Assembly (NCBI GenBank): GCA_947630705.1
Contig: CANRIK010000011.1
Location: forward strand, 1-58,917
Length of the DNA stretch: 58,917 nucleotides
Reading direction: 5' to 3'
Origin: an uncultured Clostridia bacterium
Lineage (GTDB): Bacteria > Bacillota > Clostridia > Christensenellales > Borkfalkiaceae
Both the position numbers and the translations under genes were made by a program. Under the pieces are notes generated by a model. The model searched no databases. It was not told where the DNA came from and was given only the letters and a program-made list of their open reading frames with translations. Shown piece by piece: positions 31,363 to 40,786 of this stretch. The number at the start of each line of letters is the position of its first letter. Positions within the stretch are counted from its first letter, which is position 1.

Positions 31363-31439
31363 GGGACTTTAGCTCAGTTGGTTAGAGCGGTCGGCTCATA
31401 ACCGATTGGTCCGCGGTTCGAGTCCGTGAAGTCCCACCA
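31363..31439 (+). tRNA. tRNA with CAU anticodon, probably tRNA-Ile2 (or elongator Met)
   Basis: This 77-nt gene has a perfect GGGACTT/AAGTCCC acceptor stem, encoded CCA, discriminator A, D-loop AGCTCAGTTGGTTAGAGC and anticodon loop CTCATAA. The body resembles Firmicute tRNA-Ile2, in which C34 is changed to lysidine by TilS, more than elongator Met (usually TTCATAC). The initiator is unlikely because it pairs at the first acceptor position. Identity is therefore probable, not certain. Confidence 0.9.
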
Positions 31440-31485
31440 TTCGCCGCAATGCGGCAACCTCTCCATATAGGCAATATGGAAGTAC

Positions 31486-31562
31486 GGCCCGATAGCTCAG
31501 TTGGTTAGAGCGCCAGCCTGTCACGCTGGAGGTCGACGGTTCGAGCCCGTTTCGGGTCGCCA
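31486..31562 (+). tRNA. tRNA-Asp (GUC)
   Basis: This 77-nt gene has acceptor GGCCCGA/TCGGGTC (one G-U pair), discriminator G and encoded CCA. The anticodon GTC sits in CCTGTCACG and the T-loop is TTCGAGC. As a GUN tRNA it would be a Tgt substrate for queuosine. Confidence 0.97.
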
Positions 31563-31595
31563 AACTTATTTTTATTCTGCGCCGAAAGGCGTTTC

Positions 31596-31671
31596 GCCTT
31601 GGTAGCTCAGTCGGTAGAGCGGTGGACTGAAAATCCATATGTCGGCGGTTCGATTCCACCCCAAGGCACCA
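31596..31671 (+). tRNA. tRNA-Phe (GAA)
   Basis: This 76-nt gene has a perfect acceptor GCCTTGG/CCAAGGC, discriminator A, encoded CCA and anticodon GAA in CTGAAAA. Its anticodon and discriminator match the specifier UUC and the T-box variable base before pheS in this window. Confidence 0.97.
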
Positions 31672-31686
31672 CCCCTGTGGGTTCGT

Positions 31687-31762
31687 GCTGGTGTAGCTCA
31701 ACTGGCAGAGCAGCTGATTTGTAATCAGCAGGTTGTGGGTTCGATTCCAATCACCAGCTCCA
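31687..31762 (+). tRNA. tRNA-Thr (UGU)
   Basis: This 76-nt gene has a perfect acceptor GCTGGTG/CACCAGC, discriminator T, encoded CCA, anticodon TGT in TTTGTAA, and T-loop TTCGATT. Confidence 0.97.
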
Positions 31763-31805
31763 CAAGTCAACTGCCCCACGAAAAATGTGGGGTTAAAATA
31801 TATTC

Positions 31806-31890
31806 GGGCGGATTGCAGAGTGGCCAAATGCATCAGACTGTAAATCTGACGTCTCCGACTTCGGTGGTTCGAATCCACCTCCTCCCACCA
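31806..31890 (+). tRNA. tRNA-Tyr (GUA)
   Basis: This 85-nt class II tRNA has a long variable arm (GTCtccGAC), anticodon GTA in CTGTAAA, discriminator A and encoded CCA. The acceptor GGGCGGA/TCCTCCC contains one C-U mismatch at the fourth pair. It would be a Tgt substrate. Confidence 0.93.
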
Positions 31891-32106: not shown

Positions 32107-32319
32107 TTATTTTTTTACGCTCGATTTTAACGTATTTAAATCAGTCTCGATACCTACGCTCTTTAAAAACTCAACATCCTTTTCGGTAAATACATTTGCC
32201 TTGTCGTTCGCCGCACTTCGGGCGAGTTTTTTATCGACTTTTCTTACAGACAGCCAAACAAACGGATAAGAAACGAAATGCCAAAGCGCAAGAAAGAAGT
32301 CTTTGATTTTTTGCTTCAT
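32107..32319 (-). CDS. Small protein downstream of the SLOG gene, unknown function
   Basis: This is a 70-residue protein. The N-terminus (residues 7-25, DFFLALWHFVSYPFVWLSV) is hydrophobic and aromatic, suggesting one membrane-associated helix, and the rest is charged and helical. GAGG lies 10 bases before the ATG. It begins 28 bases after the SLOG-like gene and ends just before a terminator, so the two form a pair. I do not recognise the family. The short length lowers certainty, but the SD, spacing and terminator support it. Confidence 0.6.
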   Translation of the reverse strand: MKQKIKDFFLALWHFVSYPFVWLSVRKVDKKLARSAANDKANVFTEKDVEFLKSVGIETDLNTLKSSVKK

Positions 32320-32347: not shown

Positions 32348-32824
32348 TTACTTATCAGTCAATGCAAGATTGACAATTTTCTTGTGAGATTTTACGGCGT
32401 ATTGATATGTCTTGTATGCGCCGCTGTTTTCCCGTTCTTCCACATAGAACAGCACCAAATCGCTATCGTCTATCATCGAAACGTTGCGAAAGAATATCGA
32501 AGTGTACCACCACTCCTTGCGTTTCAGAGGACAGCAAAGATCCTCATACTCCTTTCGCCGAAACCAATGCGGAGGTTTGCGTAAGTCCCTTTCGAGCGGA
32601 AAACAAAATATCCTCTGAATATTATACTCCGGAGCCTGCGCTTTTTTTGCCGTTACAATGTCATACACAAGATCGTCAAAACTACTCAAACCGCCAAAAA
32701 GAAAAGTGCGAACACCGTCTGCAATCGCCCTATCGATTTCCATTACAGTCCTTGCTTTCAGTTCTTCGGTTATCTCAACCTCAAAATGTCCGAAGCAAGA
32801 GCATACTTTTTCCGTATCACACAT
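32348..32824 (-). CDS. SLOG-like (DUF1273/YpsA-type) nucleotide-binding protein
   Basis: This 158-residue soluble protein starts MCDTEKVCSCFGHFEVEITEE and continues with a GVRTFLFGGLSSFDDLVYDIV segment and a late strand DLVLFYVEERENSGAYKTYQYAVKSHKKIVNL. This layout, a strand ending in a GH, then a glycine-rich GGLSSFD helix, is that of SLOG-superfamily proteins related to YpsA/DUF1273, which bind nucleotides or their derivatives. The cysteine-rich start (C2, C8, C10) is unusual. The ATG abuts the 161-bp RNA-like repeat copy 1, whose hairpin contains the only SD-like GGGAG. Function is unknown, and family membership is by pattern only. Confidence 0.65.
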   Translation of the reverse strand: MCDTEKVCSCFGHFEVEITEELKARTVMEIDRAIADGVRTFLFGGLSSFDDLVYDIVTAKKAQAPEYNIQRIFCFPLERDLRKPPHWFRRKEYEDLCCPLKRKEWWYTSIFFRNVSMIDDSDLVLFYVEERENSGAYKTYQYAVKSHKKIVNLALTDK

Positions 32825-32986
32825 AAGAAGCGCCGCTCCCGAGAGAACGGCACTCCGTAGAATACCGTTCCATGGTTGCTACGCCAAATAAACCCTTTCT
32901 TGTAGAAAAAAAACAGTTTGAAACAGGTATCACTACCATTATTCATATGTTTTTTTTCTACAAATAATACGTTCTATCCTGTTAAG
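32825..32986 (-). ncRNA. Candidate structured leader RNA, copy 1 (upstream of the SLOG gene)
   Basis: This 162-bp element is repeated at 33108-33268. On the minus strand it forms a 13-bp stem GTAGAAAAAAAAC/GTTTTTTTTCTAC, an AACGG/CCGTT stem, a possible closing AGAACG/CGTTCT pairing and a CTC-tcg-GGAG hairpin 11 bases before the SLOG ATG. Differences from copy 2 keep pairing on the minus strand mostly through G-U pairs. No known riboswitch class was recognised. Confidence 0.5.
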
Positions 32987-33062
32987 GGCAAAATGAGAGT
33001 TTATTAAATTCAGCGTAGCAATAATATTATAACACTTATATTTAAAAATATCAACAAAGTAC

Positions 33063-33084
33063 GAGCAAAAAATTTTTTTTGCTT
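33063..33084 (-). terminator. AT-rich hairpin after repeat copy 2
   Basis: AGCAAAAAA at 33064-33072 pairs with TTTTTTGCT at 33075-33083. It lies downstream of copy 2 on the minus strand, before copy 1, and could terminate a short copy-2 transcript. The stem is weak apart from its GC ends. Confidence 0.4.
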
Positions 33085-33107
33085 GTTTATTTTTATCCCG
33101 TAAAATA

Positions 33108-33268
33108 AAGAAGCGCCGCTCCCGAGAGAACAGCGCTCCGTAGAATACCGTTCCATGGTTGCGACTCCATATAAACTCCTTTCTTGCAGAAAAAACAGTT
33201 TGAAACAGGTATTACTGCCATTATCCATATGCCTTTTCTACGCAAAAAACGTGTTCTGCTCTTACAAG
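33108..33268 (-). ncRNA. Candidate structured RNA, copy 2 of the 161-bp element
   Basis: It is a diverged direct repeat of 32825-32986, 283 bp away. Core blocks such as ACCATGGAACGGTATTCTAC are identical. Stems survive as GTAGAAAAGGC/GTTTTTTCTGC (three G-U pairs), AACGG/CTGTT (one G-U) and AGAACA/TGTTCT. It contains a 25-codon frame starting MESQPWNGIL with AAGGAG upstream, but copy 1 breaks that frame. Remaining flanks (32987-33107 and 33269-33404) show no gene. Confidence 0.45.
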
Positions 33269-33404
33269 AACATTATCGAAGTTTTATTTATCATGAAGTC
33301 GCATTAATGTTATAGCATGCCCACTTTAAAATATCAACAAAGTGCAGGCATAAAAATTTCTTTATAATTATTGTATGTCTCAATTACGGATATCGGATAT
33401 ATGT

Positions 33405-33523: not shown

Positions 33524-34075
33524 ATGGGCAAAGGAAAAAATTTAAAGATGCAATTATTGCAGAATTATTTCTCAATCGAGGGAAATATTGCAACGTTGAA
33601 ACTTGTATACGACACTTTTTCGGAGCTCATAAATCCGAATTTCGGAGACGGGAACATAGAGAAACTGAACGACAAACTCTTTTCCGACGTGCACGAGGCC
33701 GTATCGCTGCTGCCGCGGAAATTCAAGCTGAATTTGCAGATAGTCATAAAAGATTTCGGCGATTACGACAAAGAGGAATGTGATAAAATAATCAAGCAAA
33801 ACATATACCTTGCCGCATACCGCACAATTAAAGAAAACAACAAAAAATTGGTCAGCGGCTGGTCTTTGATAGGCGTCGGAGCAATCATTCTGGTCATAAG
33901 TTACTTCTTACATAATTATAATTTATGGTTCGACTTAATAAATATAAGCGGCACGCTATTTGTCTGGGAGGGCGTAAACACGGCTTTTCTGCAAAGAAAT
34001 CTCGAAAATAAGGCCACAAGGACTCTCGCAAAGTCCATTGAGAACATTACGATCGTCGGTTCCGACGAAATATAA
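33524..34075 (+). CDS. Unknown protein with a C-terminal two-helix membrane hairpin
   Basis: This 183-residue protein is unrecognised. Residues 1-105 are soluble and helical, with many charged residues (YDTFSELINPNFGDGNIEKL). Two hydrophobic helices follow at about 111-129 (GWSLIGVGAIILVISYFL) and 133-150, then a basic/helical tail (RNLENKATRTLAKSIENI). GAGG sits about 9 bases before the ATG, and promoter and terminator flank it, so it is a complete single-gene unit. It lies next to the RNA-like repeats, but no functional link is visible. Confidence 0.7.
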   Translation: MGKGKNLKMQLLQNYFSIEGNIATLKLVYDTFSELINPNFGDGNIEKLNDKLFSDVHEAVSLLPRKFKLNLQIVIKDFGDYDKEECDKIIKQNIYLAAYRTIKENNKKLVSGWSLIGVGAIILVISYFLHNYNLWFDLINISGTLFVWEGVNTAFLQRNLENKATRTLAKSIENITIVGSDEI

Positions 34076-34167: not shown

Positions 34168-34332
34168 TTACTCGTGGTCCATTACCCAATAACCGCCCTC
34201 ATGCTGTAAAGGCGGAAAAGTCGTACCCTTTTCAAGATAGGTCTTTTCGTTGTCGTGGCTGTTGCCGTTTTTATCGTATGCCTTATAGTGGCAAGACATA
34301 GGAACGGTATCTCCGGACCTGAATTTTTCCAT
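34168..34332 (-). CDS. YjzC-like small protein
   Basis: This 54-residue protein is read from ATG 34332, which has GGGGGAA about 6 bases upstream. The longer frame from 34377 has no such signal. The sequence MEKFRSGDTVPMSCHYKAY, then DKNGN..., a KGTTFPPLQHEGGYWV end, resembles YjzC-type proteins: SG-D-P, YK-YD-G, kG-FPP and a W near the C-terminus. Members are small and poorly understood. The assignment is by motif pattern and moderately sure. It stands alone and converges on the gene at 33524. Confidence 0.6.
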   Translation of the reverse strand: MEKFRSGDTVPMSCHYKAYDKNGNSHDNEKTYLEKGTTFPPLQHEGGYWVMDHE

Positions 34333-34465
34333 AATTATTCCCCCTATACCTCTATTATGCGCCGCTCGTCGGGACATTATGTAAGCTCGGGAAAAAGAAA
34401 TTTTTAAAATTCGGAAATTGCCCGTTTAAAAATAAATAAAATGCGGTATATATTAAATGAACAAA

Positions 34466-40510: not shown

Positions 40511-40786
40511 AGCTGTACTGTGCTGGGTGGGGAGTTTGCGGTGCCCTGAACCTGCAATCCGCAATAGCAGGACCGACCGTCTTTCCCGACGGAGCATGTG
40601 GAAGGCCGCGCCTTATAAGGAGTGTTGATTTCAAGGTCTCATGCAATCGCAGGCTGCGAACCGTGTCAGGATAGGGATATAGCAGCACTAAACAGTTATC
40701 GCGGTGTGCCATGAGGTAGCTTTGACGGAGCCACCTGTAAGGTTTACGCTTCGGCATGCGCCGGCAAAAAAGACTGCACAGCTTTT
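40511..40786 (+). ncRNA. ffs: Signal recognition particle RNA, large Alu-containing form
   Basis: This ~275-nt RNA targets membrane proteins with Ffh. It has the 5' Alu-like GTGCTGGGTGGGG, the helix 8 core GTCAGG-atagggatat-AGCAGC at 40665-40686 (a variant of the GGAA-capped loop), and closing ends AGCTGT (40511-40516) with ACAGCT (40778-40783), followed by TTTT. Long SRP RNA of this type is usual in spore-forming Firmicutes. Exact ends are estimated. Confidence 0.9.

What the first reader, a model, noticed from the sequence alone, without database searches (positions are those of the whole stretch)
32825..33268. Duplicated ~161-bp element that looks like a new structured RNA in front of a SLOG-like gene
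Two diverged copies (32825-32986 and 33108-33268) share identical blocks. Read on the minus strand, differences keep stems paired mostly through G-U: GTAGAAAAAAAAC/GTTTTTTTTCTAC becomes GTAGAAAAGGC/GTTTTTTCTGC; AACGG/CCGTT becomes AACGG/CTGTT; AGAACG/CGTTCT becomes AGAACA/TGTTCT, a full pair change. On the plus strand several of these would be A-C mismatches, which points to a minus-strand transcript. One hairpin there (GGTA/TACC) is not preserved in copy 2, so not all helices agree. Copy 1 ends at the start codon of the SLOG gene, and its CTC-tcg-GGAG hairpin contains the only SD-like sequence, as in a translation-controlling riboswitch. Copy 2 is followed by an AT-rich hairpin. I recognise no known RNA class.
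Basis: partly seen in the sequence, partly recalled or inferred. Interest (0 to 1): 0.78.

Follow-up and report, generated by a model that had tools for sequence, protein, structure and literature searches.

The report
New gene-switch RNA in gut Clostridia
The two look-alike stretches are tandem copies of a folded RNA that we found in no catalogue, seen in many gut Clostridia, that carries its own promoter and a stop-or-go terminator and probably switches the next gene (here a nucleotide-binding SLOG-type protein; elsewhere often surface proteins) on or off in response to an unknown signal.

Summary
Each copy is a minus-strand cassette: sigma-70-type promoter, 200-nt RNA starting on the first base of a closing helix P1, and an intrinsic-terminator hairpin (units 33019-32820 and 33302-33103). 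No Rfam 15 family reaches its threshold at the units scanned. Covariance models made here match 22 of 93 genomes of the genus, 64 of 301 of a family sample, 97 of 396 of an order sample and 71 of 391 of a class sample; in a phylum sample of 299, at a stricter cut-off, only the own genome. Helices covary, and 135 of 160 units have a near-consensus promoter that the models do not contain. After P1, strands pair 1:2, 2:3 and 3:4; strand 2 fits both partners, as in a transcription attenuator. SLOG (YpsA-fold) genes follow 34 of 111 genus and family units; of 39 loci retrieved by SLOG protein, 37 carry the RNA upstream. Other downstream proteins include BspA-type leucine-rich-repeat and lipoproteins. 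Best reading: a new attenuator class that works like an orphan riboswitch, ligand unknown. Copy 1 probably controls SLOG; copy 2 probably makes a short RNA. No expression data exist here.

The parts
33026..33054 (-). promoter of copy 1 (TTGATA 33054-33049, 17-nt spacer, TATAAT 33031-33026); the -10 box ends 6 nt before P1
   Evidence: sequence; 12 of 12 consensus matches
32820..33019 (-). RNA unit, copy 1 (match of model R1), ending over the SLOG start codon
   Evidence: fold z -6.8
33011..33019 (-). P1 5' strand, copy 1
   Evidence: helix covaries in A1 and A5
32878..32886 (-). P1 3' strand, copy 1
32900..32963 (-). long hairpin P2 of copy 1 (arms 32900-32915 and 32948-32963)
   Evidence: (I3)
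32926..32937 (-). P3 hairpin GGUA-GUGA-UACC (GNRA-type loop), copy 1; its 3' side is part of strand 1
32920..32924 (-). strand 1b (GUUUC), pseudoknot partner of strand 2, copy 1
32860..32871 (-). strand 2 (GGAACGGUAUUC), pairs with strand 1 or strand 3, copy 1
32844..32856 (-). strand 3 (GGAGUGCCGUUCU), antiterminator or terminator 5' strand, copy 1
32827..32840 (-). strand 4 (GGGAGCGGCGCUUC), terminator 3' strand that holds the SD-like sequence of the SLOG gene, copy 1
33309..33337 (-). promoter of copy 2 (TTGATA 33337-33332, TATAAC 33314-33309)
   Evidence: 11 of 12 consensus matches
33103..33302 (-). RNA unit, copy 2 (match of model R1); no gene of its own, followed by the promoter of copy 1
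   Evidence: fold z -3.2
33293..33302 (-). P1 5' strand, copy 2 (GCGACUUCAU)
33161..33170 (-). P1 3' strand, copy 2 (AUGGAGUCGC)
33143..33154 (-). strand 2, copy 2
   Evidence: sequence, A1 columns
33127..33139 (-). strand 3, copy 2
   Evidence: sequence
33110..33123 (-). strand 4, copy 2, followed by a U-rich run
   Evidence: sequence
32348..32824 (-). SLOG (YpsA-fold) gene, 158 aa, probable target of copy 1
   Evidence: AlphaFold model pLDDT 91.9; first PDB match 2nx2 YpsA
32107..32319 (-). 70-aa gene next in line; homologues directly follow the RNA in G069 (L063, L083)
   Evidence: similarity seen by eye

Best explanation
A new class of cis-acting transcription attenuator, built as a promoter-sensor-terminator cassette. 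RNA polymerase starts on the first base of P1 (inferred from promoter spacing). The body folds into P1 enclosing P2 and P3 and leaves a free strand 1 (P1 and, in class B, P3 shown by covariation). As strand 2 emerges after P1 it can pair with strand 1 (pseudoknot) or, later, with strand 3; strand 3 can instead pair with strand 4 to form a terminator hairpin (pairings supported, dynamics inferred). If 1:2 holds, 3:4 forms and transcription ends; if 1:2 is prevented or released, 2:3 forms, the terminator is blocked and strand 4, with the SD of the SLOG gene, is freed (inferred). The most likely input is a small molecule bound by the P2/P3 core with its conserved GGUAG, that is, a riboswitch (inferred, about 55%); a protein or RNA factor is the alternative. 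Copy 2 is a complete cassette without a gene and should yield a terminated RNA of about 200 nt or rare read-through into copy 1.
For: No Rfam family reaches its gathering score at a unit in the window or in 40 scanned loci, while tRNA, SRP and tmRNA are found in the same scans. Relatives in 97 of 396 order genomes, 76 of them outside the family that supplied the model, and 71 of 391 class genomes, 64 outside the order; none but the own genome of 299 in the phylum sample. Covariation on MAFFT alignments: class B, 91.1% of cells paired, 19 of 28 pairs with a change on both sides, score 0.377 against 0.241 in shuffles (0 of 500 reach) and at most 0.136 when slid; class A, 97.9% paired, score 0.233 against 0.150 (0 of 500) and at most 0.096 when slid. 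Promoter not in the models: 97 of 110 units score 10 of 12 or more against 2.8% of shuffles; 135 of 160 in the larger set. Strand 2 fits both partners: 1:2 scores 17.5 against 14.3 (sd 0.31) with swapped partners and 2:3 20.8 against 15.6 (sd 0.35), 0 of 200 reach; swaps with the nearest relative are worse in 51 and better in 11 (27 ties) and worse in 49 and better in 14 (26 ties). U-run of 4 or more in 152 of 161. SD-like sequence in the 22 nt before the start, in or near strand 4, in 20 of 23 units whose SLOG gene starts at the unit end. Of 39 loci retrieved by SLOG protein, 37 have the RNA upstream.
Against: No transcript data. The terminator is more stable than the antiterminator in the folding model (mean -18.1 against -12.2 kcal/mol; antiterminator within 4 kcal in 45 of 152 units), so switching has to be kinetic. 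The 1:2 test has a composition effect: a reversed-strand control also exceeds its swaps (13.7 against 12.9, sd 0.26, 0 of 200 reach), though by a quarter of the 1:2 excess. In class A two measures are weak: 57 of 500 shuffles reach the number of pairs changed on both sides and 32 of 500 the number of pair types, and the pseudoknot pairs hardly vary there. The counted structures were drawn partly from RNAalifold on the same alignments, which favours them over slid versions. Pseudoknot cells in A5 pair in only 77.7%. P3's GGUA/UACC is broken in copy 2. For 38 of 161 units no ORF of 45 codons was found near the end, some because of contig ends. Downstream genes show no metabolic theme, unusual for a riboswitch. 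SLOG genes follow only 4 of 50 order and class units.
Confidence: 0.72

Rival explanations
1. A stand-alone trans-acting small RNA family: the terminator is simply its 3' end and neighbouring genes are incidental or read-through passengers.
For: Own promoter at a fixed distance from P1; tandem arrays with no gene between units, 12 adjacent pairs in the 161 units examined and four in a row in G073 and G171; 38 of 161 units without an ORF found close by.
Against: Start codon directly at the unit end and SD-like sequence in or near strand 4 in SLOG units; 37 of 39 SLOG loci carry it upstream; strand 2 fits strands 1 and 3, which an sRNA terminator does not need.
Confidence: 0.15
2. A protein-controlled attenuator: an RNA-binding antiterminator protein (possibly the SLOG protein itself, as feedback) binds the core instead of a metabolite.
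For: Large conserved core; downstream genes of unrelated families, which suits a global regulator; SLOG is the commonest neighbour found in the own genus and family.
Against: 46 of 50 order and class units have no SLOG next to them; no candidate binding protein identified; not tested.
Confidence: 0.25
3. Type III toxin-antitoxin-like pair: RNA repeats as antitoxin of the SLOG protein.
For: RNA, then terminator, then gene, with tandem RNA copies.
Against: Units are about 140-250 nt with their own promoters, not short repeats under one promoter; many other genes follow; no PADLOC model matches the 33 SLOG proteins.
Confidence: 0.03
4. Leader-peptide attenuator, in which a ribosome on a small upstream ORF decides between 1:2 and 2:3.
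For: Four-strand logic as in amino-acid attenuators (recalled); copy 2 does contain an SD-preceded short ORF (by eye).
Against: Only 22 of 161 units have any SD-preceded start codon in the leader, and that frame is broken by TAG in several relatives (by eye).
Confidence: 0.03

Closest known systems
Orphan riboswitch candidates and transcription-terminating riboswitches (kind, not family)
   Same: Conserved core enclosed by P1, pseudoknot, mutually exclusive antiterminator and terminator, position before genes
   Different: No Rfam 15 family reaches its threshold; start site fixed on P1; whole promoter-sensor-terminator cassettes in tandem; downstream surface proteins and SLOG genes
Four-strand attenuators such as the trp leader (recalled)
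   Same: 1:2, 2:3, 3:4 relay
   Different: No conserved leader peptide; strand 1 lies in a P1-enclosed core, so 1:2 is a pseudoknot
Tandem riboswitches (review PMC9481103, start of abstract seen in a search listing only)
   Same: Two related elements in series
   Different: Here each copy has its own promoter and terminator, so they are separate transcription units
Type III toxin-antitoxin (ToxIN; recalled)
   Same: RNA repeats, terminator, then gene
   Different: Unit size, own promoters, varied downstream genes, no PADLOC match
YpsA / SLOG superfamily (downstream protein)
   Same: AlphaFold model matches YpsA 2nx2 first (E 1.5e-6, TM-score 0.73 by query length); 17 of 33 RNA-linked SLOG proteins match Pfam PF06908
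   Different: The window's own protein falls below Pfam detection; 16% identity to YpsA

Membership tests
Any Rfam 15 family | gathering score reached at the unit | tested here: not met
   window and 40 loci scanned. Sub-threshold matches touch a few units: E 1 or worse in the window, rli38 on the other strand in L110 (E 0.35), Leu_leader by 3 nt in L069 (E 0.05)
Riboswitch | conserved structured core with covariation | tested here: met
Riboswitch | expression platform with mutually exclusive structures | tested here: met
   strand 2 fits strands 1 and 3; 3:4 terminator hairpin; switching itself not shown
Riboswitch | located in 5' leaders of genes | tested here: met
   an ORF of 45 codons or more starts from 12 nt before to 110 nt after the end of 123 of 161 units
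Riboswitch | direct binding of a ligand that changes expression | not testable with these tools
   needs in-line probing or reporter assays
T-box | match to the T-box model | tested here: not met
   no match (that Rfam holds a T-box model is recalled)
Leader-peptide attenuator | conserved SD-preceded small ORF in the leader | tested here: not met
   22 of 161 units have any SD-preceded start in the leader
Type III toxin-antitoxin | short RNA repeats under one promoter before a toxin of a known family | tested here: not met
   near-consensus promoter at 135 of 160 units; no PADLOC match
SLOG / YpsA (protein) | YpsA-type fold | tested here: met
   (predicted model)
SLOG / YpsA (protein) | Pfam PF06908 match of the window's own protein | tested here: not met
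   17 of 33 relatives do match

The most novel reading that the evidence does not exclude
A Clostridia-wide orphan riboswitch for a nucleotide-type signal, also handled by the SLOG proteins, that coordinates surface proteins with a conflict or stress response; and the gene-less tandem cassettes are functional short RNAs that soak up the signal or regulator (decoy aptamers), a use of riboswitch-like RNA in arrays that would be new.
Probability: 0.12. Interest if true: 0.92.

Novelty: new variant of a known kind. Interest (0 to 1): 0.77.

Why it matters
A structured RNA matched in about a quarter of the sampled order genomes and a fifth of the class genomes, with seven hits in some genomes although only the seven best candidates per genome were scored, is missing from Rfam 15. 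It points to an unknown regulon (BspA-type leucine-rich-repeat surface proteins, lipoproteins, SLOG proteins) in little-studied gut bacteria and gives a ready-made assay, terminator read-through, for finding the signal. Its fixed start site and promoter-complete tandem copies also raise the question whether gene-less copies act in trans.

Tried and rejected
Known RNA family: rejected. Phage origin: five exact patterns in viral contigs gave 0, 4, 1, 1 and 0 stretches; model R2 confirmed none of the six. blastn against phages found nothing; one scan with the window's SLOG protein in viral contigs found no relative. Leader peptide: rejected. My first broad test of 1:2 over the whole internal region was weak (17.8 against 16.5, sd 0.32) and was replaced by a window after the GGUAG motif; units lacking that motif or a good P1 were dropped: 13 of 78, 35 of 161, where 37 near-duplicates were removed too (89 left). 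A P3 column choice was wrong (helix 23.6% paired) and was corrected. Two regular expressions for SLOG missed the CSCFGH group. c-di-GMP as signal can be neither shown nor excluded; the genome has two GGDEF matches. Published description: six paper searches that ran and passages of two papers (PMC11109978; PMC8040213) showed none; supplements and subscription journals were not seen.

Full report
1. What is there. On the minus strand the repeat is a whole transcription cassette. Each copy has a promoter (TTGATA, 17 nt, TATAAT in copy 1 and TATAAC in copy 2), then, 6 nt after the -10 box, the first base of a helix P1, then about 200 nt that end in a G+C-rich hairpin and a U-rich run. Copy 1 (33019-32820) ends over the ATG of the 158-aa gene; copy 2 (33302-33103) ends about 50 nt before the promoter of copy 1. 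No Rfam family reaches its gathering score in the window at the units; with lax thresholds the best overlapping match has E 1.

2. Relatives. blastn found the unit in 14 of 93 genomes of the genus, own included. A covariance model R1 from 14 units (A1), which come from 9 genomes of the genus, matched 22 of 93 genomes in the genus and 64 of 301 in a family sample, 7 of 18 genera (E <= 0.01). A second model R2 from 31 more distant units of the genus and family (A5) matched 97 of 396 genomes in an order sample, 76 of them outside the family, and 71 of 391 in a class sample, 64 of them outside the order (E <= 0.001). The samples overlap; only a handful of first-look candidates per genome were scored in the large searches (7), so these are lower bounds. 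In a phylum sample only the own genome of 299 matched, at a stricter E <= 0.0001; at least nine of those 299 were of the same class and also had none. The own genome holds five units: two in the window and one each on C15, C3 and C18, the last three before a membrane protein and two lipoprotein-like proteins (by eye). Rfam scans of 40 loci (20 each) reach no gathering score at a unit; two sub-threshold matches overlap unit ends (L110 rli38, other strand, E 0.35; L069 Leu_leader by 3 nt, E 0.05). Named records carrying the RNA-SLOG pair are metagenome bins, mostly titled uncultured Clostridia bacterium; the gut origin is read from titles, and the class name of the window's own genome is inferred from them.

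3. Independent support. The promoter is not in the models. In 110 of 111 genus and family units with enough upstream sequence, 97 score 10 or more of 12 consensus bases, against 2.8% of shuffled upstream sequences; where printed, the spacer is nearly always 17 and the -10 box ends 6 nt before P1. In the set enlarged by 50 order and class units the count is 135 of 160. Exceptions include three units of the G171 array, which score 7, 9 and 9.

4. Structure. P1 varies but stays paired: GCGAC/GTCGC, GCTAC/GTAGC, GTCAC/GTGAC, ACCAC/GTGGT, GGCAC/GTGCC. On MAFFT alignments, class A (14 rows) has 97.9% of cells paired, covariation 0.233 against 0.150 in shuffles and at most 0.096 when slid, but 57 of 500 shuffles reach its five pairs changed on both sides; class B (31 rows) 91.1%, 0.377 against 0.241 and at most 0.136, with 19 of 28 pairs changed on both sides and 0 of 500 shuffles reaching that. 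The structures were drawn partly from RNAalifold on these alignments. P1 is best supported in both; P3 covaries in class B. The pseudoknot columns pair in 100% of cells in A, where four of five never vary, and in 77.7% in B. In the 14 class A rows the P3 loop is always GNRA-like and the loop before strand 3 UACG or UGCG, UNCG-like (A1; loop classes recalled).

5. The switch. After P1 come strands 2, 3 and 4; strand 1 is the 3' side of P3 plus the free GUUCC (class A) or UCGC (class B). In 89 non-redundant units (of 161; 35 dropped for lacking a clear P1 or GGUAG motif, 37 as near-duplicates) the best 1:2 helix scores 17.5 against 14.3 (sd 0.31) with partners swapped between units, and 2:3 scores 20.8 against 15.6 (sd 0.35); 0 of 200 permutations reach either. 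Swapping with the nearest relative makes 1:2 worse in 51, better in 11, equal in 27; 2:3 worse in 49, better in 14, equal in 26 (the pairs are not all independent). A reversed-strand control also exceeds its swaps (13.7 against 12.9, 0 of 200 reach), so about a quarter of the 1:2 excess may be composition. Strand 3 also pairs with strand 4, the terminator, in 95.5-95.8% of cells, and 152 of 161 units have a U-run of at least 4 at the end. One strand that fits two partners is what a switch needs. The terminator is the more stable hairpin, so antitermination has to win by forming first.

6. Genes. A SLOG gene starts within 150 nt of 34 of 111 units, in 31 genomes. The opposite direction: of 39 loci retrieved from named genomes by SLOG protein similarity, 37 have the RNA upstream on the same strand (36 by R1; L181, cut by a contig end, by R2; not L201 and L202). 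None of 20 distant SLOG loci (24-34% identity) matches R2 (R1 was not run on them). The window's SLOG model (pLDDT 91.9) matches YpsA 2nx2 first, then ShosA, DprA and, lower, the ThsA SLOG domain with 3'cADPR. Where the SLOG gene starts at the unit end, an SD-like sequence lies in the 22 nt before it, in or near strand 4, in 20 of 23. Of 123 first downstream ORFs I scanned 81, leaving out most SLOG proteins and some short or doubtful frames: Pfam finds LRR_5 in 14, LRR_8 in 10, Listeria-Bacteroides repeats in 5, zinc ribbons in 3, YpsA in 2.

7. Tandem copies. Twelve adjacent pairs were found among the 161 units, with gaps of 47-166 nt. G073 has four units before a SLOG gene that is cut by the contig end; G171 has four with no SLOG gene seen after them. 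Upstream copies keep P1 and, in 10 of 12, a strong promoter. In L216, L218, L220 and L240 the two units of a pair have different P1 types, so they are not recent duplicates. In the window P1 of copy 2 differs from copy 1 by two full pair changes and three one-sided changes that keep pairing (A1). I infer that gene-less copies are under selection.

8. Verdict. The structured RNA family is close to certain; transcription attenuation is likely; a small-molecule ligand is a guess slightly better than even. It reaches the threshold of no catalogued family tested.

Noticed in passing
32107-32319 (-) and L063, L083: The 70-aa protein after SLOG has homologues that directly follow the RNA twice in genome G069, without SLOG; function unknown.
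   Followed up: partly
L010 / G059:C93:721-1187: A SLOG gene behind an RNA unit is split into two overlapping reading frames (probably a frameshift); described only.
   Followed up: no
L127 (G171:C138), 442-1524: Four tandem units, three with weaker promoters, and no SLOG gene seen after them.
   Followed up: partly
L216, L218, L220, L240: Recurrent pairs in which an ACCACA-type unit precedes a GCGACA-type unit, each with promoter and terminator; looks like a conserved serial arrangement.
   Followed up: partly
L176, L200: The RNA-SLOG pair also sits on short contigs binned as Gastranaerophilales and Scatousia; transfer or binning error.
   Followed up: no
L166, 3208-3458: A more diverged unit lies behind the SLOG gene of the same contig as the double unit, before another gene (starts MKKKILALL).
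   Followed up: partly
window 31363-31887 (+): Cluster of five tRNA genes.
   Followed up: no
window 40518-40781 (+): Bacterial large SRP RNA.
   Followed up: no
window 34168-34377 (-): YjzC-like small protein (Pfam PF14168).
   Followed up: no
window 33524-34075 (+): 183-aa protein with a hydrophobic stretch, divergent from the cassettes, no Pfam match.
   Followed up: no
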